This document shows, one piece after another, positions 8,271 through 35,697 of a stretch of 44,085 nucleotides of DNA. How positions within the stretch are numbered: position 1 is the first letter of the stretch; each line of letters opens with the position of its first letter. The notes beneath the pieces were generated by a model that made no database searches, was not told where the DNA came from, and saw only the letters and a list, made by a program, of their open reading frames with translations. The position numbers were made by a program, and so were the translations under genes. This DNA comes from Armatimonadota bacterium (GTDB lineage: Bacteria > Armatimonadota > Fimbriimonadia > Fimbriimonadales > ATM1): contig JAJPJR010000036.1 of assembly GCA_021324165.1 (NCBI GenBank), forward strand, positions 1 through 44,085, in the 5' to 3' direction.

Positions 8271-9338
8271 ATGGTCGAACTGTTGCTTTCGGTCTGCTTG
8301 AATGGCGGCAGGTGGCATTTTCAAACGGTCGGTTCGTTTCAGGTTTACGGTTCTTATGCTGCTTCGGGGCCGTTTTTGTCGCGCGGCGGTTCGGTCGGGC
8401 TGTCGGTGCCCGAAAAAAGAACGTACCGATTCGATGCAAAAACCAAAAGCGTAACGCTGCTCAGCGTGCAAGCCGTGCATGTGGGAAATGGGGTGAATTC
8501 ATCTTCTCAGGCAGATTGCGATGCCGGGATCATCAGCGCGTATTTGCAAAAAACCGACGACACCGGAACGCTTCTGAGTTGGGATATTGAAACCGGACGT
8601 CAACTGGTTTCGAAACCTGTTTCGTGGAACCGATTTCGCAGAGTCGGCCCTTTGCTCGACGGGTCGTTCAATCTCGCTGCCGGCAAAACGGTCGAAATCC
8701 CGTTCAGCGGCTGGCCGGTGTGGGCAAACGAAGACTTCGTTGTGCTGCTGGAGCCAAGCAAACTTGCGCGGCAATATGGGCCCTATTCCGTTGCGAGTTT
8801 GGTTGACATAAAAAGTGCAAAACCGCTGCACTCCCAGTTGGTGAGTCCCTACGAACAAGGTTTTTATCGCATCATCGGCGATCCGCTGCATCCGCCGTGT
8901 GCTTTTGAATTCGGGTTCTCGGGGGTTGGGGTCGAAGTCTACTCTTATTCGATTTTGAAAGCGGGGTGGGCGCCCTTCGCGCGGAATTATCCGAAGGTGT
9001 GGGATGCTTCGCCGATTGGGGTTCTGGTCAGCGTGGTGGATCGCGGTTATCCTTCGAAAGGGCCGCGATATCCGAGCGTTTCATTCGTTGATCCGGTTTC
9101 GGAAAAAGTTTTGTGGACGAAGCCGGCAGGAGACGATGCGTTTTTGTTCGACGGCAAAGTTGTGTTGTGTGATAAAGAACGTTGGGTGGTGGCAGAGCCA
9201 CGGTCGGGCAAAGTTGGTTTCACATTGCGCGTGGCCGGACGTTTGGTTGCGCGGCGCGGCGCGTTGTTTTTGTTTCAGCTGAAGGCGACCAAACCCCGCC
9301 ACGTGCGATACGAACTGCGCCGCGTCGTGTCGGGTTGA
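8271..9338 (+). CDS. Unknown protein with beta-propeller-like repeats
   Basis: The 355-residue product is not recognised. It lacks a signal peptide and membrane segment. It contains repeated short beta-strand units in the style of PQQ or WD-like propellers: LLSWDIETGRQLV, SVASLVDIKSAKPLHSQ, YPSVSFVDPVSEKVLW and RWVVAEPRSGKVGF, where a strand is followed by Asp/Glu-x-x-Ser/Thr-Gly/Glu-Lys. ATG 8271 is preferred over the TTG two codons earlier because of the -10 box just upstream. It ends seven bases before the convergent helicase gene. No function is proposed. Confidence 0.65.
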   Translation: MVELLLSVCLNGGRWHFQTVGSFQVYGSYAASGPFLSRGGSVGLSVPEKRTYRFDAKTKSVTLLSVQAVHVGNGVNSSSQADCDAGIISAYLQKTDDTGTLLSWDIETGRQLVSKPVSWNRFRRVGPLLDGSFNLAAGKTVEIPFSGWPVWANEDFVVLLEPSKLARQYGPYSVASLVDIKSAKPLHSQLVSPYEQGFYRIIGDPLHPPCAFEFGFSGVGVEVYSYSILKAGWAPFARNYPKVWDASPIGVLVSVVDRGYPSKGPRYPSVSFVDPVSEKVLWTKPAGDDAFLFDGKVVLCDKERWVVAEPRSGKVGFTLRVAGRLVARRGALFLFQLKATKPRHVRYELRRVVSG

Positions 9339-9345
9339 GAGTTTT

Positions 9346-11292
9346 TCACAGCTCCGGCAGCCCGACGCGTTTCAGATAGGCGTAGGTTTGGTCGTAGAAC
9401 TCCGGGCTTCGCGTCCAGTCGGTTTTATCGCCGTTCGGCACCACGATCACCATGCCCTGCCTCGCGCGAGTGAGAAGAACGCGGTAAGCGTTTTTTTGAT
9501 ACTTTTGCGATTCGATATTCCTGATTCGCTCCCATTTGTTCCCTCGAAAACGGAAGTTTTGAAACGTTTTGTCACGGAACCGAAGATCGGCATCCCAAAC
9601 GACGCACGACCAATCAACCTCCAGCCCTTGAATGTGAAACTCCGTTGCAACGTCTTCAAGATAGAATGACGAACGGACATCGTCCGGGTCACCGAGAAAC
9701 CAGTTCACCGGTCTTACGGGAGCCTTTACGTGAATTCCTTGTGCGCGAAGGCGCTCGGCCTGCGATGAGGCAATCATTCCGAATCGTTCACTTCCTCGCG
9801 CATTGCCGCGGACCCACTCCTTGCCTTTTTCCAGAGATCGGGTCAAAAACAGTGGGTATTTCTGAGAGATTTGGTGCAACATTTCTTTGGCACCAGGATC
9901 TTGATTCAGCACCTGATGCACAAATTGCGAAAGTTGTTCTGCACGGAATGATCGCATGGAAACCGACAGGTGAAGCCGTTGATCTTCGACAACTTCGTTT
10001 GGAATCCCGTGCAAGATTTCTGCAACTGCGTATTCGTCGCGATTCAAGTGTGGAGAAATGTGAACGCGCCAATCGCGGAACCGTCTTCCTATCGAGCACA
10101 ACCATTCACCGATCCCAGCTTCGCCTGTGTGAATCTCCTGACCGCCGCCCACCAAACAGATGATTACTGCCCAATCGTCATGACGGTCCAAACATGAAAT
10201 AAGAAACTCAGGCTCTGAGTAATGAAAGTTAGGGATTCTCTTTCGCCTACGCATGAAGTCTCTGGTTTTTTCTAATGTCCATGCTCTTTGAGCTTCATCG
10301 AAAATGGCCACGTGTTCCACGGGCGGCTTTTCATCCCTCCAGCAATCATCTCGGAATCTGTGCACGTTTTGTATGAAAGCCTGAACTGAACGACGCGCTT
10401 CCAAAATTCTTCGCCTTGCTCCCTGACTTGCATCGCGAGCCAGCGCTTCCTGAAGTACTTCCACCAGCGGCCCATTTCCCGACATGAACACGCTGTGCAT
10501 GTTGGACGAGCTATCGAGGTACTGCGTGGCTAAGTTAAGACCTGCGAGAGTCTTTCCCGAACCGGGTACACCCGTGACAAAACAGATGGATTTCCTTCGA
10601 TGCGCACGTGACCGTTCAACGATTTCGGATAGCGCCTGATTTGTGGAAGTGAGATTTGCCGCACCGGCGTCGCTGCGTGCAAGGTCGGCAACACTGTGAT
10701 TCCTATACAAAGCCGTTGCCGCTTCAACGATGGTTGGGGTCGGCCAGTATTGTCCGTTGATCCAGTTGTGCGCAGATATCGGCTGCCCCAAAGGTTGTGC
10801 GAGCATATGTCGAAGGAAAGGTGCGAGATCGTTTGGGCTTAAACAAACGGGATCAAAGACGCGGTCGTCTCTTGCCTTTGGAAATGTTGAAAGCGGAGGA
10901 GCCGTTGCGGCGGTTGCGATTAGGATCGGGACGATCGCCGCATGTTCGCTGGGTCGGTGGAAATACTTCAGGTCTAACGCGTAATCCCAAACTTGTTGGA
11001 TTGCCTGACTTTCGAACGAATCTGCCCCAACCTTAAACTCGATCACAAACACCACCGCGCCGATGATGAGCACAACGTCAATCCGTTTGCCGAGTCGTGG
11101 AACGGTGAACTCCATCACCACGTCGCCTTGGAAACCTGCGACGCTGCGCTTGATGATTTCGACTTCGGTGCTCCAAGCCTCGAGTTCTGTGCCTTTGACG
11201 TCATAACCGCTCGCCAGCGACAGCTCTCCGACGACGGCCTCGGTTGAACTCGAGCAAAAGTCCGAGATGGTTTTGTGGAGGAATTGCGCCAT
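9346..11292 (-). CDS. DUF2075 superfamily 1 helicase with N-terminal nuclease-like domain
   Basis: The 648-residue product joins two parts. Residues about 45-110 carry a PD-(D/E)xK-like core: Asp72 in GKRIDVVLI and Glu85-x-Lys87 in VIEFKVG. From about 232 follows a DUF2075 ATPase: Walker A GVPGSGKT (241-248), Walker B IFDEAQR (330-336), and the C-terminal motif VI-like YRVLLTRARQG (603-613). DUF2075 proteins are putative DNA/RNA helicases, often found with defence genes; a nuclease-helicase acting on foreign or damaged nucleic acid is likely but not shown. It stands alone here. No ribosome site precedes ATG 11292. A repeat block lies directly upstream. Confidence 0.85.
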   Translation of the reverse strand: MAQFLHKTISDFCSSSTEAVVGELSLASGYDVKGTELEAWSTEVEIIKRSVAGFQGDVVMEFTVPRLGKRIDVVLIIGAVVFVIEFKVGADSFESQAIQQVWDYALDLKYFHRPSEHAAIVPILIATAATAPPLSTFPKARDDRVFDPVCLSPNDLAPFLRHMLAQPLGQPISAHNWINGQYWPTPTIVEAATALYRNHSVADLARSDAGAANLTSTNQALSEIVERSRAHRRKSICFVTGVPGSGKTLAGLNLATQYLDSSSNMHSVFMSGNGPLVEVLQEALARDASQGARRRILEARRSVQAFIQNVHRFRDDCWRDEKPPVEHVAIFDEAQRAWTLEKTRDFMRRRKRIPNFHYSEPEFLISCLDRHDDWAVIICLVGGGQEIHTGEAGIGEWLCSIGRRFRDWRVHISPHLNRDEYAVAEILHGIPNEVVEDQRLHLSVSMRSFRAEQLSQFVHQVLNQDPGAKEMLHQISQKYPLFLTRSLEKGKEWVRGNARGSERFGMIASSQAERLRAQGIHVKAPVRPVNWFLGDPDDVRSSFYLEDVATEFHIQGLEVDWSCVVWDADLRFRDKTFQNFRFRGNKWERIRNIESQKYQKNAYRVLLTRARQGMVIVVPNGDKTDWTRSPEFYDQTYAYLKRVGLPEL

Positions 11293-11345
11293 TGCTGGTA
11301 AGAGATTTCTTGGGGCCCCGTGAGTTTATCACGTTGGTTTTCTGA

Positions 11346-11654
11346 TACCCCCTACCCGTTCGCTGCGCTCACGGACTTCCCCCTGATTCCAGGGGGCAGC
11401 GTGGATTGCATAGAATCCATCCTTCCCATTGCATTAGGGGGAAGGTGGCGCGGAGCGCCGGAAGGGGGTTTGGGTTTTATGCACACCCCCTTCACCGTTC
11501 GCTTCGCTCACGGACTTCCCCTGATTCCAGGGGGCAGCGTGGTCAGTGTTGGGTACCCCCTTCACCGTTCGCTCCGCTCACGGGGCTTCCCCCTGATTCC
11601 AGGGGGAAGCGTGGTTTGCATAGAATCAATCCTTCCAACAGATTCCAGGGGGCA
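11346..11654. repeat. Palindromic intergenic repeat block, copy 2 (longest)
   Basis: Three successive copies of the CGTTCGCT-x-CGCTCACGG plus CCCCCTGATTCCAGGGGG module begin near 11357, 11496 and 11565. The first is followed by the GGATTGCA link, a CCTTCCC/GGGGGAAGG hairpin and the GGCGC/GCGCC hairpin, exactly as at 2241-2301. The order of modules differs from the other blocks, so they expanded separately by partial duplication. The stretch between the helicase start (11292) and the histone-like gene (11886) holds no other gene; a 7-base inverted repeat GGAGTGT/ACACTCC lies at 11658-11688. Confidence 0.8.
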
Positions 11655-11885
11655 GAAGGAGTGTGCGACGATTTGATTACGACACTCCAACCGCAAACCT
11701 TTTGCCCTTCGCCGAGCAGTAGGAAAGATGAGTGTTGCAATGCACAATCCGCGTGCCTGGACACACCATCTAAAGCGCGAAGCAATCATCTCGCACTCCA
11801 AAAAGCGCGCAATATTTGACGCCGAACAACTCACAAATTGTTCCCGCCGCGAAACAATCAGCAACGCTGTTTCGTCAAAAATATT

Positions 11886-12302
11886 ATGCCAGAACAAAAA
11901 ACTGTTCGCAAAGCGAAAGAAGACAAAAAGAAAGGAAAATCACCATCAACTCAAGCCGGCGAGTTCGTAAAAGAAGAGATCGAACACGTTCGAAAAGGCA
12001 AACATGGCGCACGCAGCGCAAAGCAAGTCATTGCAATCGGATTATCCAAAGCGCGCCGCGCCGGCGTGAACGTTCCTGCTCAAAAAGGCGCCGCGAAAAC
12101 CGGCCCCACAAAAACCAAAACAAGCGTCTCCAAAACACGCTCAGCTGCAACGAAAAACGCCCTGAAAAAAGAAGGCAAAGCGGCGGCAAGCACAACGGCG
12201 CTTTCGCGTCAAGCCAAGGCGGCAGCAAAAAAACGCACCGCCACCCAGCGCTCGACCAGCGCGAAAAAAGCCGCGAAAACCCGCAAGCGCACCAAAGGCT
12301 AA
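11886..12302 (+). CDS. Histone H1-like/DUF6496-type basic DNA-binding protein
   Basis: The 138-residue product starts MPEQKTVRKAKEDKKKGKSP. The N-terminal 60 residues, including STQAGEFVKEEIEHVRKGKH and ARSAKQVIAIGLSKARRAGV, match a small conserved domain (DUF6496-like) that I know mainly from Proteobacteria. The rest is a Lys/Ala/Thr-rich unstructured tail in the style of bacterial histone H1-like proteins (AAKK, KTRKRT). Non-specific DNA binding and nucleoid compaction are expected from composition. ATG 11886 is chosen because the conserved domain starts there. The last four bases overlap the end of the convergent next gene. Confidence 0.75.
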   Translation: MPEQKTVRKAKEDKKKGKSPSTQAGEFVKEEIEHVRKGKHGARSAKQVIAIGLSKARRAGVNVPAQKGAAKTGPTKTKTSVSKTRSAATKNALKKEGKAAASTTALSRQAKAAAKKRTATQRSTSAKKAAKTRKRTKG

Positions 12303-12766
12303 AGCACAGACCTGGCTGAACGGGAAAGCTCGGCGGGCTCCACCGCACGAAGAACGCACTTGGCCCGCGCCGAACGGATGGACGACGCCTCGCGTTCCGG
12401 CGCGTCGAACCAGAACATCGCGTGCTTGCCCGATGCGTCTATGTCGGTTCCCCGCCTCAGGTCATAGATCGTCTCCCACGGTGTGGCGGCGGTGCGGAAG
12501 TTTTTGTGCTGCGCGTGAATGAAAAAGTGGCCGCCCTTCAACAAAAACAGCCGCTCATCTTCGTGGTTTCTCACCTCGATCTGGCCGTCTTCGCTGCGAA
12601 CTACAATCATGAACTCATGAGCCTCGCCGTCGTGACAAACTTCGGGGTTGTGAAACTCGAACTCAAATTCATACGTGCCGGGTTCGGTGAACACCTCGTA
12701 GCCGTAAACGGTCGTGTCATCGCCACGATCCCAGCTGCTTTGCATCACTGCTTTAATTGGCGCCAT
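12299..12766 (-). CDS. Small soluble protein of unknown function, cupin-like
   Basis: The 155-residue product has no signal or membrane segment. Alternating strands with scattered His and Glu (GTYEFEFEFHNPEVCHD, EAHEFMIVVRSEDGQ, LKGGHFFIHAQHKNF) suggest a small beta-barrel such as a cupin, but the classic cupin His motifs are not clear. The start is well supported: AGGAGG lies eight bases upstream of ATG 12766. It is followed by no further minus-strand gene and overlaps the convergent histone-like gene by four bases. Confidence 0.65.
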   Translation of the reverse strand: MAPIKAVMQSSWDRGDDTTVYGYEVFTEPGTYEFEFEFHNPEVCHDGEAHEFMIVVRSEDGQIEVRNHEDERLFLLKGGHFFIHAQHKNFRTAATPWETIYDLRRGTDIDASGKHAMFWFDAPEREASSIRSARAKCVLRAVEPAELSRSARSVL

Positions 12767-12805
12767 CGGTTTCCTCCTGGATTGAGCGGTGTGCGAACGC
12801 GACGC

Positions 12806-13417
12806 TTATCGCCGATACATGCGGATCAGCGGGAAGCCGATGAGCGATCCACCATAGTTGCCCAAAATGATCGGCCCGCCATAAAGCTGCACAAGCGATC
12901 CGTTGTTCCAGCCCAAAATCCCTGGGCCCAACTGGTCGGCATAACCCTGATTGAAATACATCCAATCTCCCAGCGCGTTGAAATCGCCATACCACCCGCC
13001 TTGCGGCTGAGCGTAGCCTTGTTCAGAAGGCTGTTCGGGCGTCGCATAACTCGGCGGAGTCAGGTCGGCTTCGGTCCAAAGCGCGTGTCCGTCGTCGGTT
13101 CGCACGGCGGTGGTTTTTCCGTTCATCACGATGCGGTGCGCCACCACATAGGCCTGCTTGCCCGAATAGCGCCAAATGCCGATGGCCGTGACTTTGTCTC
13201 CGAGTTGAAACTTCAGATTTCGATCCGCCAAAAATTTCGCAGGCGCAATTGCAACTTCGATCGCCCGCCCTGTGGGCTGCGAAACCAAAATCGCCACCGG
13301 ATCGCCGGTCAACACTCCCACGATCTTTCCGCGAACCGAAATCTCTTGGCTGAACGCCGGCGCGAATGCGCAAACTCCCAATGCCCATGCGCCCACGATT
13401 TTGAAAATCAGTTTCAT
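12806..13417 (-). CDS. Exported protein of unknown function with a possible OB-like domain
   Basis: The 203-residue product has a signal peptide (MKLIFKIVGAWALGVCAFAP, cleavage likely after AFS at about residue 23). Residues about 25-105 form short strands (ISVRGKIVGVLTGDPVAILV, DKVTAIGIWRYSGKQAYVVA) like the OB-fold domains of bacterial periplasmic proteins. The rest is rich in Gly, Tyr and Pro and probably flexible. GGAGG seven bases before ATG 13417 fixes the start; a frame from 13435 has none. It lies 60 bases after the LemA gene and could be part of that transcript. Confidence 0.7.
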   Translation of the reverse strand: MKLIFKIVGAWALGVCAFAPAFSQEISVRGKIVGVLTGDPVAILVSQPTGRAIEVAIAPAKFLADRNLKFQLGDKVTAIGIWRYSGKQAYVVAHRIVMNGKTTAVRTDDGHALWTEADLTPPSYATPEQPSEQGYAQPQGGWYGDFNALGDWMYFNQGYADQLGPGILGWNNGSLVQLYGGPIILGNYGGSLIGFPLIRMYRR

Positions 13418-13477
13418 GTCCGCCTCCTGTTGCAAGAATTGGTATCCAGTCAGACGCTGTTTGCTCGGGCGGAGTTC

Positions 13478-14077
13478 CTATGATGGGGCGGCCGCCCCAG
13501 CAATGTTTGGGGGTTTCCGAATTTCGAGCGAAGACACCTCGAAATAAGGTGCCGGACTCAGGCCTCGGGCTCTGCCGACAAAAGCCGCCGGAAAGCAAGC
13601 AAGAAGCGTATTGAATTCCCGCACGTTGGCGTTATAAAACCGTCGCGCCGCGGCGATGCGGTCTTCGGTGTTCACAAGCTCCTTTTGCAGCTCCAAATAC
13701 TGCTGGCTGGCCTTCAAATCAGGATACGCCTCGATTCTGGCGATCAACTGGTTGACCGATTCCACAAGCCTCTGCTCGACTTTGGCTTGAACGTCCACCG
13801 CCCCGACCTCGTGCATCGCTGCGGCGCGCAGGTCGGCGACTTTCTGCAGCAGCTCGCTTTCATATCGGGCGTACGCTTTGACGGTCTCTACCAGATTCGG
13901 GATCAGGTCGTATCGCCGCCGCAAAACCACATCCACATTCGACCAACTTTCAAGAATCAGGTTTTTCAGATGCACGAACCGGTTGATCGTAAGGAACCAC
14001 CAGATGACAACGATTGCGCCGACAGCAGCTGCGCCGCCGCAAACATAAATAACGATCTTTAGGGCGTCGTCTGTCAT
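13478..14077 (-). CDS. LemA family membrane protein
   Basis: The 199-residue product has one membrane helix (about residues 8-30) and the characteristic LemA helical bundle: LKNLILESWSNVDVVLRRRY, then DLIPNLVETVKAYARYESEL, and near the C-terminus NTEDRIAAARRFYNANVREF with FNTLLACFPA. Length is typical. LemA proteins are inner-membrane proteins of poorly known function. The ATG overlaps the stop of the upstream gene (ATGA), so the two are translationally coupled, a pairing that recalls LemA next to DUF3137-type membrane proteins. Confidence 0.93.
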   Translation of the reverse strand: MTDDALKIVIYVCGGAAAVGAIVVIWWFLTINRFVHLKNLILESWSNVDVVLRRRYDLIPNLVETVKAYARYESELLQKVADLRAAAMHEVGAVDVQAKVEQRLVESVNQLIARIEAYPDLKASQQYLELQKELVNTEDRIAAARRFYNANVREFNTLLACFPAAFVGRARGLSPAPYFEVSSLEIRKPPNIAGAAAPS

Positions 14078-30423: not shown

Positions 30424-30630
30424 CCTTCCCCCTGGATTTAGGGGGAAGGTGGCGCGGAGCGCCGGAAGGGGGTTCGTCGTCATGGCACACCCCCTTCACC
30501 GTTCGCTTCGCTCACGGGGCTTCCCCCTGCTTCCCGGGGGCAGCGTGGAAAAGGGGGCAGCGGGGAGGGATGAGAGCGTGGATTGCACACATTCCATCCT
30601 TCCCCCTGCATTTAGGGGGAAGGTGGCGCG
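30424..30630. repeat. Palindromic intergenic repeat block, copy 3
   Basis: Two CCTTCCCCC/GGGGGAAGG hairpins (30424-30449 and 30598-30623) flank the CACCGTTCGCTTCGCTCACGG segment and a CCCCCT...GGGGGC module with a changed loop. The GGCGC/GCGCC hairpin and the GCGTGGATTGCA link are present too. Between the modules is a G-rich, imperfectly duplicated stretch (30547-30575). The block fills most of the divergent gap between flgF and the sigma factor gene (30288-30684), where no gene is seen. Confidence 0.8.
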
Positions 30631-30684: not shown

Positions 30685-31383
30685 ATGGGGGAGCCGGGGA
30701 AGATCGGGAACCTGGCCGATCAACTGGAGCAGTTGCGGCCCCGCCTTTCGGCGTTCGTTTCCAAAAAGACCCGCAACCGGGCCGACGCCGAGGAGATCAC
30801 CCAGCAGACCATGCTGATCGCCTTCCAAAACCTTGAACGGTTCCGGGGTGATTGTCCCCTGAGTCACTGGGCTTTCCGGATAGCCGCCCACGCCTGCACC
30901 CGCTACTACCGCAGGCTGGGCTCAAAAGAAACATCAATAGACGACCTTCCCGAAAACCTTGTTCCCGCCGCGCAACAACAACGTTCAGAAGAGTCTCCTG
31001 ATGCCGTGGACCGAAACCTGTGGCTGCAAAGAGTGATCGAGGTTGCGCAGGAAGCATGCACGCCAACAGAGTTTCGTGTGATGATGATGATGTATCAAAC
31101 TGGATCGCTTGACGAAGCAGGAACCTTGCTGAAAATGAACGGTGCAACTGTGCGAAGCCATTTCCTGCGCGGCCGCGCGAACCTTATGGCGAAACTGATT
31201 TTGGAAGCGCCCGATCTGATCGGCGGCAAGTTGGAACTGGATGCGGCGATCGGAAAGGCGCAAAACGATCAGGAAGGCTTTTCGAAAGCGGAGCAGGAGG
31301 CGTTGGCATCGCCTGACAAACGGTCGAAGGCGTATCGCTCGGCCTGTTTGAAAATTGCCAGGCATCTGCCGAATCCGTTTTGA
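30685..31383 (+). CDS. ECF-type RNA polymerase sigma factor
   Basis: The 232-residue product has sigma region 2 at about residues 20-80 (DAEEITQQTMLIAFQNLERF, then LSHWAFRIAAHACTRYYRRL, the -10 recognition helix) and a region 4 helix-turn-helix at about 113-170 (GSLDEAGTLLKMNGATVRSH), with no region 1 or 3, so it is an ECF sigma. About 60 extra residues follow region 4, a C-terminal extension of the kind that can regulate ECF activity. It is the first gene of a three-gene set with an anti-sigma-like protein and a TPR-CHAT protease. ATG 30685 lacks a ribosome site. The target promoter cannot be read from this window. Confidence 0.9.
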   Translation: MGEPGKIGNLADQLEQLRPRLSAFVSKKTRNRADAEEITQQTMLIAFQNLERFRGDCPLSHWAFRIAAHACTRYYRRLGSKETSIDDLPENLVPAAQQQRSEESPDAVDRNLWLQRVIEVAQEACTPTEFRVMMMMYQTGSLDEAGTLLKMNGATVRSHFLRGRANLMAKLILEAPDLIGGKLELDAAIGKAQNDQEGFSKAEQEALASPDKRSKAYRSACLKIARHLPNPF

Positions 31384-31405
31384 TGAATCCATGGGGAAAA
31401 ACAGC

Positions 31406-32305
31406 ATGAGCGTGCGAAAAGAAGAACCGCGAAACAGATTCGACGAAGCGTTGAAAACCGCGCTTCAAACCGCGCCGGCAGAAGGGTGTCCCGAACCTGA
31501 AGAAGTGGAGCAGGCGGTTGTGTTGGGCAAAAGGTTCGTGCGCTGGCATCAGGTGATGGATCATGTCGCAGCCTGTAAATCTTGCCTGGAAACCGCCCAG
31601 ACCTTCGAAAAACTTGAGCGCGCCAAAAAGATTTCGAAGATGGCATGGTTGAAAAAGTTCGCTGAAACGCACATAAGGGTAGATGACGGATTGCGAGACG
31701 GCGCGACGAAACTTCCTAAGTGGTGCTTGGCGTTTCTCAGGCAGTTCTCTTTCGAGGCGCCGGCTGCGGCGTATCGGGCTGCGACGACCAACCGGCAGCC
31801 AGCCGTTCGAGTCGCATCTCCTCCATTAGAAAACTCGTCGGTTGTGTCGTTCCCAGCCGCGATCGCATGGCGCGAAACGCCGGGGGCAATCGGATATGAG
31901 GTTTCGCTCGAGCAGTCTCGCCCCGGCATCGGAAACGGTTTTGAAACGGTTGCGAAAGCGGTAACCGAGCGCCCCGAGTGGGTGCACGGTGCGCGCATAA
32001 AACCTGGGCGCCGTGTTCGAATTCGCATTCGGCCTCGATGCGGTGATTTGGAACTGAGCGCGACGACCGTCGAGACCGCGGTCGAATTCCGCACGCTCTC
32101 GAACAAGCAGCGCGAGCAGGCGGAATGGGCGATTGATGCCGCTCCGGCGGCGCCGCTTACTGCGGCAATCGTGCTTTCGGCACTGGGTTTGCATATCGAG
32201 GCGCTGAAAGCGGCGGAACGAATCGCCGAAAACGATCAGCGCAAAAAACTTGAAGCGCACATCGCATCGAAGATCGAAGCGCGGCGGGCGGAAATGGGCG
32301 ATTAG
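31406..32305 (+). CDS. Soluble anti-sigma-like protein with zinc motif and FN3-like domain
   Basis: The 299-residue product begins 22 bases after the sigma gene. CPEPEE at Cys28 and H-x3-C-x2-C at His53, Cys57 and Cys60 form the zf-HC2/ZAS pattern of ECF anti-sigma factors. No membrane segment follows, so it would be cytosolic. Residues about 160-245 are strand-rich with AIAWRETPGAIGYEVSLEQ, as in FN3-like domains, and the last 60 residues are helical. The gene order suggests that it binds the ECF sigma and is the natural substrate of the CHAT protease encoded seven bases downstream; this is inference. ATG 31406 has GGGGA nine bases upstream; ATG 31391 would add five residues. Confidence 0.75.
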   Translation: MSVRKEEPRNRFDEALKTALQTAPAEGCPEPEEVEQAVVLGKRFVRWHQVMDHVAACKSCLETAQTFEKLERAKKISKMAWLKKFAETHIRVDDGLRDGATKLPKWCLAFLRQFSFEAPAAAYRAATTNRQPAVRVASPPLENSSVVSFPAAIAWRETPGAIGYEVSLEQSRPGIGNGFETVAKAVTERPEWVHGARIKPGRRVRIRIRPRCGDLELSATTVETAVEFRTLSNKQREQAEWAIDAAPAAPLTAAIVLSALGLHIEALKAAERIAENDQRKKLEAHIASKIEARRAEMGD

Positions 32306-32312
32306 ACGGCCT

Positions 32313-34826
32313 ATGTCGGCGCTTGAATGGTTTGTGCGCAACTGTTCTGAGATTTGCGATCCTGATCGCCTTCGAGAAGGAGTAGCGCTTTTCGAACAGG
32401 CGGTTTCGATTTTGGAAAACGCAGCGGAGGATCGCCGCAATGCCGAGTCGAATGCGGCGTGTGCCGCGGCGGTTGTGCAGTTTGCAAGGGAGCACAGAAC
32501 CGATGCGCTGCCACGCTCGTTGATCGCAGCGGCGAAAATCGCAAGGTGCGCGGCGGATTGGAACCGTGCGGTTTGTTTTGCCGAGGAGGCGGGCGAGCGG
32601 TCGAAGGCTGAAGGAGATGAGAGATCGTTCGGAAAATCGCAATCGGTTTTGGGAGCGATCTGCGTGGATCTCGGCGTGCCGAACGACGCGCTTGCGCATT
32701 ATCAGGCCGCAAAAGCCGCGTTTTTGACAGCAGGCGATGAAAACGGAGTTGCGGCTGCTGAGTTCAACACAGGATTGGTGCGGTTTCAAACGGGCCGGTA
32801 TCGCGACGCGCTTGCACAGTTTGCGGCGGCCAAGTCGCGCTATGATCAGAGCGGGGACTTGCGGCTCAGCGCGGTTTGCGATCTCAACAGCGCAAACGTT
32901 TATCGAGAGACCGGCAGACGGCTCGAAGCATTGGCGCTCTATCGAAAAGCGCGAAAGGTTTTTGCTGAACTTGGCGATGAACGCAGAGTTGGAAGCTGCT
33001 TGGTTAACTTGGGCAACATCTATTTTGATTTGGAACGGTGGTATGAATCCGCCGAATCGTATCGCCAAGCACAGGCGGTGTTCGAAAAGTTGAATGAAAA
33101 GGCGCGCTCGGCAGGCTGCCGCCTGAATTTGGGAACGCTGAGTATTGCCGAGGGCCGACTCGATGACGGGTTAGACGATCTGCAGCAAGCCAAAGCGGTG
33201 TTTGAATCGGTAGGAGATTCAAGGCGGATTGCGGAATGCGAACTGCGCATCGCCGAAGCCGAATCGCTTCTGGGTTTGCAGCCGGATGCGCTGCGGCACG
33301 CAACAAACGCCGAACGCCTTGCGGCAGAAGCAGGCGACGGGGTTTTGGAAGCGTGCGCGTTGGTGTTGTTGGGGGATTTGACAAACGAACCGCGCGAATC
33401 TGCTCTTCGATATGAAAAAGCGGCAGAAAAGATTTCTGAAATTCGTGTTGAACTTCGGAGCGCCGAACTGGCAGTCGGCTTCGGTGCGAACTTCCGTCTG
33501 CTTCCTGCAAAAATCGCGCTGAGTTGTTTGCATGCGGGAATGATCGAAGCGGGATTTGAAGGTGTGCAAAAGGCGAAGGGCGCGGCGCTGAGGATCGCGC
33601 TTGGGGCTGGGACTCGGCGCGTGCAAAAGATGACACCGGAAGAGGCGGCGTCGTTGAACCGTCTGCGCGCCGAGATCGAAAAGTTGGATGCAGAAATCGC
33701 GAGCGCTGAACGACACTCTTTGAACTTCGTTCAGTTGAAATCGGCCCGCGATTTGGCGGCTGCCGAGCGCAATGCGCTGAGAGGCTCAATTTCGTTGCGG
33801 GAGGCCGATGAGGAAGTCTGTTCGGGAACGCACTTTTCGATATCGCAGATTCTGGCAGCCATCAATAGCGATACTGCGCTGTTGGAATTCGTGTGCGGCG
33901 AGCAGCAGACGGCCGTTTTTGTGCTTTCGGAGGCTGTGCACGCGCGGGTGATCGAGCTGCCGCGTGTGAAGTTGGAAAGAATGGTTGAAGATGCGGCAGC
34001 GGCATTGCAATCACGATCATCCAAAGCGGGAAAACTGCTCGAAGCGTTGGGCGAACTGTTGCTGCGTCCGATCGAAGCGTTGATCACAGGAAAGAACCGG
34101 CTGGTGATCTGCCCAGATGGGCCGCTGCACGGGCTGCCGTTTTGCGCATTGCGAATGAAAGGCGGAGCGGCGCTCATCGAGACGCATGGCGTTGTGATCA
34201 ACGCATCGGCGTCGGATTATGCATCAAGCTTGCAGATCGCGAATTCGGATGCAAAGCGAACGATCGCGGTTGGGGTCTCTGAGTTTGCCGAAGAGGATGC
34301 GCTTCCGAATGCCGAATCTGAGGCGCTGAGAGTTGCAGAGATGATGGAAGGCGATGCGCTGCTCGGAAAAGAGGCGACGCTGGGCGGAGTGTTGGAAAAA
34401 CTTTGTGCGTTCGATGTGGCGCATTTTGCCACGCATGCGAAGATGGACGATTTCGATCCGCTTTCGAGTGCGCTGATTCTGACGGAAGGAGAGCGTTTGG
34501 AAGGGCGCGATTTGATCGAACGGCATGTGAGCACCCAGCTGGTTACGCTCTCGGCGTGCAGTTCGGCAGGAGGGCAAGGTTCGGTAGACGGACTGTTGGG
34601 TTTAGCTTGGGCGTTTATGGCCGCGGGATGTCCGAACGTGCTGGGTGCGTTGTGGCGGCTGGAAGATGTTTGCGCAAAACAGTTTGCGATAAAGTTCTAT
34701 GAGCGGTTCGCGGCGGGCGATTCGAAAGTTGAGAGTTATCGTGAGGCGTGTTTGCATTTGATGAAATCGGAGCGATTCGCAGATCCACACTTTTGGGCTG
34801 GATGGAGATTGATCGGCGCAGGTTAG
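32313..34826 (+). CDS. TPR-CHAT caspase-like protease
   Basis: The 837-residue product has a helical start, then about six TPR-type repeats at residues 105-375 with roughly 40-residue spacing (NTGLVRFQTGRYRDALAQFA, NLGNIYFDLERWYESAESYR, NLGTLSIAEGRLDDGLDDLQ), a coiled segment near 450-510, and a C-terminal CHAT domain. In CHAT the likely dyad is His708 in HFATHA and Cys749 in LSACSSAGG, 41 residues apart, close to the spacing in the type III-E TPR-CHAT protein Csx29; both residues are present, so the enzyme should be active. TPRs usually sense a partner and gate the protease. It starts seven bases after the anti-sigma-like gene, so the three genes are one transcript. Confidence 0.9.
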   Translation: MSALEWFVRNCSEICDPDRLREGVALFEQAVSILENAAEDRRNAESNAACAAAVVQFAREHRTDALPRSLIAAAKIARCAADWNRAVCFAEEAGERSKAEGDERSFGKSQSVLGAICVDLGVPNDALAHYQAAKAAFLTAGDENGVAAAEFNTGLVRFQTGRYRDALAQFAAAKSRYDQSGDLRLSAVCDLNSANVYRETGRRLEALALYRKARKVFAELGDERRVGSCLVNLGNIYFDLERWYESAESYRQAQAVFEKLNEKARSAGCRLNLGTLSIAEGRLDDGLDDLQQAKAVFESVGDSRRIAECELRIAEAESLLGLQPDALRHATNAERLAAEAGDGVLEACALVLLGDLTNEPRESALRYEKAAEKISEIRVELRSAELAVGFGANFRLLPAKIALSCLHAGMIEAGFEGVQKAKGAALRIALGAGTRRVQKMTPEEAASLNRLRAEIEKLDAEIASAERHSLNFVQLKSARDLAAAERNALRGSISLREADEEVCSGTHFSISQILAAINSDTALLEFVCGEQQTAVFVLSEAVHARVIELPRVKLERMVEDAAAALQSRSSKAGKLLEALGELLLRPIEALITGKNRLVICPDGPLHGLPFCALRMKGGAALIETHGVVINASASDYASSLQIANSDAKRTIAVGVSEFAEEDALPNAESEALRVAEMMEGDALLGKEATLGGVLEKLCAFDVAHFATHAKMDDFDPLSSALILTEGERLEGRDLIERHVSTQLVTLSACSSAGGQGSVDGLLGLAWAFMAAGCPNVLGALWRLEDVCAKQFAIKFYERFAAGDSKVESYREACLHLMKSERFADPHFWAGWRLIGAG

Positions 34827-34896: not shown

Positions 34897-35697
34897 ATGA
34901 GAGTTTTTGGTTGGAGATCGGCTGCGATCGGGGTGTGGGCTGCGGCTGCGGGTTCGCTGTTTTCGAGTCCGATCATCGGAATCGGCGAAGGGAAGACGAC
35001 GTCGTGGACGACGGCTGTCGGCACTGGGTTGATCGTTCCGCTGGGTGCGGGCGATCCAATTGATGCGGCGGCGACTGCTTTTTATACAGGGCTGGCAGCA
35101 TCGCTCGGTTTGACTGGGATTACGCGCGTAGATGCGCTGCTCACGCCCGATGTATTGGTTTCTGATTCGAGCGGCGAAACGCACCTGTCGTTGGTGAAAT
35201 CATCGGATCCGCCTTCTGATCCGGGTCTGCTCGGCGTTTCGGAATGGAAGTTTGCCTATGTGGACGATCCTGATTTGAACGGCACTTCGATTCGTTTGGA
35301 GATCGAGGATCCGGTTGGAGTTTTGGGAATGGGCATTCAACTTGTTGATCGGAATGGACGGGCGCGCGGCTGGTTCCGCGAGCATCCGGATGAAGGTTGG
35401 GATCCGAGTTATAGTTTCAATCCTCAAAACGGATTGCAGGGCCCGTTCACGTTCTTTTTCAACGAACCAGGATTTGATTTGTCGCAGGTTTTGCAGATTC
35501 GCGTGGGTGCTGGAATCAACAAGAACTTTGCGTTTCCGGTGCCCGATCCAACGGGAAAAGGCCAGGCGTGGGATGCAACGGCGTTCATCGAAGTTGTTCC
35601 TGAGCCGGGGACGTTGATCGCGTTGTCGCCTGCGTTGTTTTTGATGAGAAAGCGGCTGCGGCGCGCAACGAGCGGGCGGACTTTGGGCTCTCTTTGA
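34897..35697 (+). CDS. PEP-CTERM sorting domain protein
   Basis: The 266-residue product has a signal peptide (RSAAIGVWAAAAGSLFSS) and a C-terminal PEP-CTERM tail: VVPEPGTLIALSPALFLMRK followed by a basic end. Such tails are thought to be recognised and cut by an exosortase, giving a surface-anchored or secreted protein. The mature part is beta-rich, with acidic repeats DPDLNG, DPVGVLG and HPDEGWDPS. ATG 34897 has AAAGG immediately upstream. It follows the CHAT gene by 70 bases and might be an output of that system, but there is no direct evidence. No exosortase gene is in the window. Confidence 0.85.
   Translation: MRVFGWRSAAIGVWAAAAGSLFSSPIIGIGEGKTTSWTTAVGTGLIVPLGAGDPIDAAATAFYTGLAASLGLTGITRVDALLTPDVLVSDSSGETHLSLVKSSDPPSDPGLLGVSEWKFAYVDDPDLNGTSIRLEIEDPVGVLGMGIQLVDRNGRARGWFREHPDEGWDPSYSFNPQNGLQGPFTFFFNEPGFDLSQVLQIRVGAGINKNFAFPVPDPTGKGQAWDATAFIEVVPEPGTLIALSPALFLMRKRLRRATSGRTLGSL

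What the first reader, a model, noticed from the sequence alone, without database searches (positions are those of the whole stretch)
30685..34826. ECF sigma, zinc anti-sigma-like protein and TPR-CHAT protease in one operon: a CRISPR-free relative of Craspase output
Seen: an ECF sigma gene, 22 bases, a soluble protein with C28/H53/C57/C60 in the zf-HC2 pattern, 7 bases, a TPR-CHAT protease with His708 and Cys749 intact. Known: in type III-E CRISPR, the TPR-CHAT protease Csx29 cuts Csx30, which controls an ECF-type sigma factor. Inference: here the CHAT protease cuts the middle protein to release the sigma factor, with the TPRs taking the trigger from something other than Cas7-11. Such sets could be the stock from which Craspase was built.
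Basis: partly seen in the sequence, partly recalled or inferred. Interest (0 to 1): 0.85.

Follow-up and report, generated by a model that had tools for sequence, protein, structure and literature searches.

The report
Sigma factor, anti-sigma and caspase-like protease
Three neighbouring genes in a Fimbriimonadales bacterium encode a transcription-switching sigma factor, its probable inhibitor and a caspase-like protease that probably relieves the inhibition; the set recurs across the phylum, outside CRISPR, in a cytosolic and a membrane-anchored version.

Summary
The set recurs: 26 of 45 other phylum genomes with a middle-protein relative have it within 6 kb of a CHAT gene (0.5 expected). The middle family has an anti-sigma-type zinc site, an FN3 domain and a helical tail. 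The protease His-Cys pair is kept in 31 of 31 linked CHATs. In co-directional sets a soluble middle protein goes with a cytosolic CHAT and a membrane-anchored one with an exported CHAT. One genome fuses middle protein and CHAT; a close relative uses a caspase instead. Most likely the CHAT cleaves or unlatches the anti-sigma and frees the sigma; cleavage is inferred, not shown. Descent into Craspase is not supported: by sequence the CHAT domains are closer to Myxococcus DdvA, a known CHAT-bearing anti-sigma, than to Csx29, and the middle protein does not match Csx30. The locus has no CRISPR, but the genome does, elsewhere. Verdict: a new variant of a known kind (protease-linked anti-sigma switches), here split and with soluble and envelope forms.

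The parts
30685..31383 (+). ECF sigma factor, 232 aa; sigma2 at aa 15-79, sigma4-like at about aa 120-170, then a conserved ~60 aa C-terminal extension (GG...K.A..L)
   Evidence: extension conserved in the 14-row alignment
31406..32305 (+). middle protein, 299 aa, soluble, putative anti-sigma factor; helical N-terminal domain (about aa 11-86) with zinc ligands C28, H53, C57, C60
31748..31810 (+). low-confidence linker of the middle protein, aa 115-135: candidate (unproven) cleavage region
   Evidence: pLDDT block means 71 and 53 at aa 111-130; inference
31793..32095 (+). FN3-like beta-sandwich of the middle protein, aa 130-230
32102..32299 (+). C-terminal helices of the middle protein, aa 233-298, with invariant W241, A242, P250
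32313..34826 (+). TPR-CHAT protease, 837 aa, no signal peptide; TPR-like helices roughly aa 1-430
34032..34817 (+). CHAT protease domain
   Evidence: PF12770 E 1.6e-50, 1.0e-51
34434..34436 (+). codon of His708, predicted catalytic
   Evidence: kept in 31 of 31 linked CHATs
34557..34559 (+). codon of Cys749, predicted catalytic
   Evidence: kept in 31 of 31 linked CHATs

Best explanation
A CRISPR-independent, protease-gated sigma switch. The middle protein holds the ECF sigma inactive through its N-terminal zinc-site helical domain. Its FN3-like domain and helical tail dock on, or are watched by, the TPR-CHAT protease. When the TPR part senses an unknown cue, the CHAT cysteine protease cuts or unlatches the middle protein (best guess: the flexible linker around aa 115-135), the sigma is released and its regulon is transcribed. 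In the window all three parts are cytosolic. In many relatives the anti-sigma spans the membrane and the protease is exported, so the cue would be in the envelope. Shown: gene order and recurrence, domain make-up, conserved active site, matching topology in co-directional sets, a fused form, a caspase in place of the CHAT. Inferred: sigma binding, cleavage, the cut site, the cue and the regulon.
For: Recurrence: same-strand sigma-middle-CHAT sets in L028, L030, L033, L041, L077 and L085, with a different sigma type in L081 and L096-L100 and in L116 from the window's own family. Adjacency 26 of 45 genomes against 0.54 expected. Anti-sigma role: zinc ligands conserved as a unit; relatives score as ChrR-type anti-sigma (E 2.1e-8) or anti-sigma (fused form, E 6.4e-6), and L083 hits zf-HC2. 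Active protease: His-Cys in 31 of 31. Same compartment: in co-directional sets 5 with soluble middle and no-signal CHAT and 15 with membrane middle and signal-bearing CHAT, none mixed. Positive charges favour the FN3 side lying outside (101 against 58 K/R). Fusion in L074. A caspase (C14, EACC1-type, signal peptide, SGHG and DACR) replaces the CHAT beside sigma-middle in G006, same family. Precedents: Csx29/Csx30/CASP-sigma (PMC10028731); DdvA structures.
Against: No cleavage or binding was tested. The topology match has few independent switches (minimum 3 and 4 changes; 1-2 concordant pairs, 0 discordant; not significant), was read from simple hydropathy, and fails in seven opposite-strand cases (six from one clade plus L055), where the middle protein has a membrane helix but the CHAT has no signal. 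Several sigma-middle pairs have no protease beside them (L031, L035, L038). Most unselected CHAT genes have no such neighbours. No autoregulatory ECF promoter was seen.
Confidence: 0.55

Rival explanations
1. The CHAT/TPR protein is a sensor partner that controls the anti-sigma by binding, not by cutting it; the protease activity serves its own maturation or another substrate. This would be the split equivalent of DdvA, where anti-sigma and CHAT sit in one chain.
For: DdvA is annotated as a transmembrane anti-sigma factor and carries a CHAT domain (8rot/8rw5). The L074 fusion has a similar layout. DdvS becomes active when DdvA is inactivated by an unknown signal (PMC4374960).
Against: The His-Cys dyad is kept in all 31 linked CHATs and, by alignment, in DdvA too, which a pure scaffold would not need. 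A different caspase-type protease, also with its dyad, takes the slot in G006.
Confidence: 0.22
2. The CHAT is an output of the switch, not its trigger: the sigma/anti-sigma pair simply controls expression of a protease effector encoded next to it.
For: Sigma-middle pairs also occur without any protease beside them, and in one clade the CHAT is transcribed away from the sigma gene (L034, L037, L050). CHAT proteins can act as effectors (general knowledge).
Against: Does not explain the middle-CHAT fusion or the match between anti-sigma anchoring and protease export. No shared ECF-like promoter was found.
Confidence: 0.17
3. The set is the direct ancestor of, or a close relative of, the Craspase output module.
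For: Same three roles. The window CHAT model matches Csx29 best of all solved structures (8eey_B, Z 33.0, 556 aligned, rmsd 10.9).
Against: CHAT-domain sequence is closer to DdvA than to Csx29 (46.5 against 23 bits). 17 of 300 bits for the Csx29 model. The middle family does not match Csx30 by sequence. The Csx29 match reflects the TPR plus CHAT fold, also shared with separase (Z about 28).
Confidence: 0.05
4. Chance neighbours without functional link.
For: Most CHAT genes in the phylum stand alone.
Against: 26 of 45 genomes against 0.54 expected; recurrence over several families of the phylum and in a Verrucomicrobia genome (L055).
Confidence: 0.01

Closest known systems
Myxococcus xanthus DdvS/DdvA (ECF sigma and transmembrane anti-sigma with a CHAT domain; PDB 8rot, 8rw5)
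   Same: ECF sigma held by an anti-sigma that is physically tied to a TPR-CHAT-like module; best PDB match of the CHAT-domain profile; the L074 fusion has a similar layout.
   Different: In the window the anti-sigma and CHAT are separate soluble proteins, with an FN3 domain and helical tail on the anti-sigma that the A1 profile did not find in DdvA. DdvS activity depends on DdvA inactivation (PMC4374960). That an ECF sigma/anti-sigma pair drives a type III-B CRISPR-Cas in M. xanthus is cited in PMC8156234 and PMC11237760; I identify that pair with DdvS/DdvA from memory.
Type III-E Craspase output: Csx29 / Csx30 / CASP-sigma (PMC10028731)
   Same: TPR-CHAT cysteine protease, dedicated inhibitor of an ECF-type sigma, the same three roles.
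   Different: No Cas7-11 found; not a Csx29 family member; middle protein does not match Csx30; CHAT domain closer to DdvA.
ECF54 sigma factors with CHAT, subtilase or carboxypeptidase neighbours (reviewed in PMC8999054)
   Same: ECF sigma next to CHAT proteins, with proteolytic control already proposed.
   Different: There control is proposed without an anti-sigma; here a dedicated anti-sigma-like protein lies between. ECF group membership of this sigma could not be tested.
Metacaspase operons with sigma-70 genes in Myxococcus and others (PMC3501461); EACC2-caspase systems with ECF sigma (PMC8195603)
   Same: Caspase-fold protease genes linked with sigma genes; the G006 relative carries an EACC1-type caspase in the protease slot.
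   Different: Those reports describe caspases, not CHAT with this FN3-bearing anti-sigma.
Zinc-type class I anti-sigma domains (Hx3Cx2C; PMC7406223)
   Same: Hx3Cx2C plus an upstream C/H ligand, gene directly after an ECF sigma, soluble and membrane forms.
   Different: Extra FN3-like domain and helical tail, and a protease gene attached.

Membership tests
ECF sigma factor | sigma2/sigma4 ECF architecture | tested here: met
   TIGR02937 sigma70-ECF 52.4 bits, cut-off 42.9; Sigma70_r2 47.7 bits; solved ECF sigmas match profile A2 to E 2e-20 over sigma2-sigma4
Class I (zinc) anti-sigma factor | Hx3Cx2C with a fourth C/H ligand in a helical N-terminal domain | tested here: met
   H53, C57, C60 and C/H28 in 17 of 18; helices 11-86 in the model
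Class I (zinc) anti-sigma factor | curated family model reached by the window protein itself | tested here: not met
   no Pfam or NCBIfam hit for the window protein; only relatives score
Class I (zinc) anti-sigma factor | binds and inhibits its sigma | not testable with these tools
CHAT protease (PF12770) | CHAT domain with catalytic His and Cys | tested here: met
   E 1.6e-50; His708 and Cys749, 31 of 31 linked CHATs
Craspase output (Csx29-Csx30-CASP-sigma) | protease belongs to the Csx29 family | tested here: not met
   NF041237 17 bits, cut-off 300
Craspase output (Csx29-Csx30-CASP-sigma) | middle protein belongs to the Csx30 family | tested here: not met
   profile A1 against PDB sequences, no Csx30 chain at E up to 1; sequence only, folds not compared
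Craspase output (Csx29-Csx30-CASP-sigma) | Cas7-11 effector in the same locus or genome | tested here: not met
   RAMP family (PF03787) hits only in ORFs of 279 and 215 aa on another contig, no large multi-RAMP protein
DdvA-type anti-sigma | anti-sigma and CHAT on one membrane-spanning chain | tested here: not met
   split and soluble in the window; met in relative L074
DdvA-type anti-sigma | CHAT domain related to DdvA by sequence | tested here: met
   profile A6 E 2.4e-11

The most novel reading that the evidence does not exclude
A phylum-wide class of CRISPR-independent sigma switches in which a dedicated caspase-fold protease (CHAT, replaceable by a true caspase) cuts a partner anti-sigma, existing in matched cytosolic and envelope versions, with Craspase and DdvA as specialised or fused cases of the same design.
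Probability: 0.4. Interest if true: 0.75.

Novelty: new variant of a known kind. Interest (0 to 1): 0.55.

Why it matters
If the mechanism holds, Craspase's protein-cleavage output is one case of a broader bacterial logic in which caspase-fold proteases gate sigma factors through a sacrificial inhibitor, with sensors other than guide RNA. The split, soluble window version would be a compact test system, and comparing the soluble and membrane forms would show what the TPR part senses. It also offers a likely explanation for CHAT genes found near ECF sigma genes that so far have only a proposed link.

Tried and rejected
Alignments of eight diverse CHATs had no stretch conserved enough for a genome-collection scan; a three-sequence alignment worked. 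A search for relatives of the Verrucomicrobia middle protein in 145 genomes of that phylum found only its own genome, so the spread outside Armatimonadota is poorly measured. An ECF-type promoter scan upstream of the sigma genes gave nothing. The topology test on a tree is underpowered. Mirror-tree correlations (0.87-0.92) are driven by one clade; without its closest members they fall to 0.48 (sigma-middle), 0.43 (middle-CHAT) and 0.04 (sigma-CHAT). The fold search of the middle protein is filled by its FN3 domain, so the N-terminal domain was not tested by fold. Direct descent of Craspase from this set was considered and not supported. Four ORFs first taken for possible third genes turned out to be unrelated neighbours: a gyrase/topoisomerase A subunit, a beta-eliminating lyase, a NuoG-like protein and a ceramidase-like protein. 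DdvA's founding paper is not held.

Full report
What is there. The window is contig C65 of a 2.33 Mb genome whose relatives are Fimbriimonadales, Armatimonadota (titles). The sigma is an ECF sigma with a conserved C-terminal extension of about 60 residues. The third gene is a TPR-CHAT protein with an intact His-Cys pair. The middle protein matches no family on its own.

The middle protein. Relatives found in other genomes of the order align over the whole length. The N-terminal zinc ligands (C or H at 28, H53, C57, C60) are kept in 17 of 18 and are lost together in the last. The L085 protein, not in that set, also lacks the H-C-C part. Some relatives score as anti-sigma: L081 as ChrR type at E 2.1e-8 and the fused L074 protein at E 6.4e-6; L083 hits zf-HC2. 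The AlphaFold model (pLDDT 86) shows an N-terminal helical part, an FN3-like domain at 130-230 (fibronectin matches by profile, E 9e-10 for the best; Z about 9) and C-terminal helices. A linker at about 115-135 is among the least certain parts. Together with its place directly after an ECF sigma, this makes an anti-sigma role the natural reading, but binding was not tested.

Recurrence. Searching 291 genomes of the phylum, the middle family hits 46 and CHAT hits 150. Of the 45 hit genomes other than the window's, 26 have a middle gene within 6 kb of a CHAT gene; 0.54 would be expected from CHAT counts and genome sizes (the CHAT list was truncated, so this is a lower bound, and three CHAT positions read from loci were added by hand). 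Same-strand trios are L028, L030, L033, L041, L077 and L085. Other lineages use a longer divergent sigma: the f35 family repeats CHAT, sigma, middle without exception in the six loci read (L081, L096-L100), and L116 in the window's own family has sigma, middle, CHAT, CHAT. That these longer proteins are sigma factors rests on a weak Sigma70_r4_2 match of one of them (L079) and on their place. A Chthoniobacterales genome has the same three parts (L055). Conversely, most CHAT genes picked without regard to the middle gene have neither partner beside them, so this is a sub-system, not a general property of CHAT.

Is the protease part of the switch? Four observations bear on it. First, the His-Cys pair is present in 31 of 31 linked CHATs. 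Second, topology: with a simple hydropathy scan, middle proteins without a membrane helix go with CHATs without a signal peptide (window, L028, L030, L033, L085), and in the 15 other co-directional sets the middle protein has a membrane helix and the CHAT an N-terminal signal or hydrophobic segment (L041, L045, L077, L081, L083, L084, L086, L096-L100, L102, L116, L126). Charges around the membrane helix favour the FN3 side lying outside (101 K/R before, 58 after; 16 of 23 richer before). On a CHAT tree there are only a few independent switches, all concordant but too few for significance. Six divergently or convergently placed CHATs of one clade, and L055, break the match; four other opposite-strand sets keep it. 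Third, in G037 the middle protein's FN3 part, a membrane helix and an anti-sigma-like N-terminus are fused to TPR-CHAT in one chain after a sigma-like protein (L074; the CHAT end is frameshifted in the assembly). Fourth, in G006 (same family as the window) the sigma-middle pair lies beside an exported C14 caspase of the EACC1 type with its own dyad, and no CHAT was found in that genome at the threshold used.

Closest known. The window CHAT model (pLDDT 87) matches Csx29 (8eey_B, Z 33.0), separase (Z about 28) and the Myxococcus transmembrane anti-sigma DdvA (8rot, Z 25.0) among solved structures (also Foldseek). By sequence of the CHAT domain the order is reversed: DdvA 46.5 bits, Csx29 23 bits. 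DdvA is therefore the most informative precedent: an ECF anti-sigma carrying a CHAT domain, whose triggering signal is unknown (PMC4374960). The L074 fusion repeats that layout; the window is a split, soluble version. Craspase (PMC10028731) works with the same three roles, but the window proteins are not Csx29 or Csx30 family members, and no Cas7-11 was found. A link between ECF sigma and CHAT was proposed before for ECF54 (PMC8999054), between sigma-70 and metacaspases in 2012 (PMC3501461), and between ECF sigma and EACC2-caspases (PMC8195603). In the held library only one paper contains both 'CHAT domain' and 'anti-sigma', the Craspase paper, though the library is partial and misses DdvA's founding paper.

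Most likely mechanism. The anti-sigma holds the sigma; the CHAT protease, steered by its TPRs, cuts or unlatches the anti-sigma when it senses its cue; the sigma acts. Confidence 0.55. Shown here: gene order, recurrence, domains, dyad conservation, topology match, fusion, protease replacement. Inferred: binding, cleavage, site, cue, regulon. The main rivals are non-proteolytic control by the CHAT partner and CHAT as an output gene.

CRISPR context. The genome is not CRISPR-free: a Cas9-like protein with HNH, RuvC and Cas9 domains and Cas1 lie on C68, and RAMP genes with a CRISPR array of 66-base spacing lie on C49. None is near the trio, and no link was found.

Noticed in passing
window 30437-30456, 30611-30630, also 2275 and 11433: A REP-like element (TTTAGGGGGAAGGTGGCGCG) lies twice upstream of the trio; its 17-base core has 18 exact copies in the genome, often paired 70-350 bases apart, and none for the reversed control.
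   Followed up: partly
L031, L032, L077, L086, L102 sigma C-termini: In membrane-type sets the sigma often ends in a hydrophobic segment (for example RFLPIPFAVWLLIMEIF), which the window sigma lacks; possibly a membrane contact of the sigma itself.
   Followed up: no
L043, L044, L086 (G034, G032): Multi-gene loci with two middle-type proteins, an additional ~520 aa protein with a weak sigma region 4 match and a large exported CHAT.
   Followed up: no
window 34897-35697: The gene 70 bases after the CHAT ends in a PEP-CTERM-like tail (VPEPGTL...); no Pfam hit. Could be cotranscribed or a regulon member.
   Followed up: no
L138 (G000:C49) 9935-13700 and 8866-9236: RAMP genes beside a CRISPR array with a 66-base period, a type III-like module in the window's genome.
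   Followed up: partly
L032:6198-9887: Downstream of the G006 sigma-middle pair lies a 1229 aa WD40 beta-propeller protein, a possible sensor in place of TPRs.
   Followed up: no
L080, L084, L087: CHASE2-bearing genes (a hybrid histidine kinase in L080, a nucleotide cyclase in L087) lie directly before FN3-type middle relatives; L084 has an ORF of like size in the same place.
   Followed up: no
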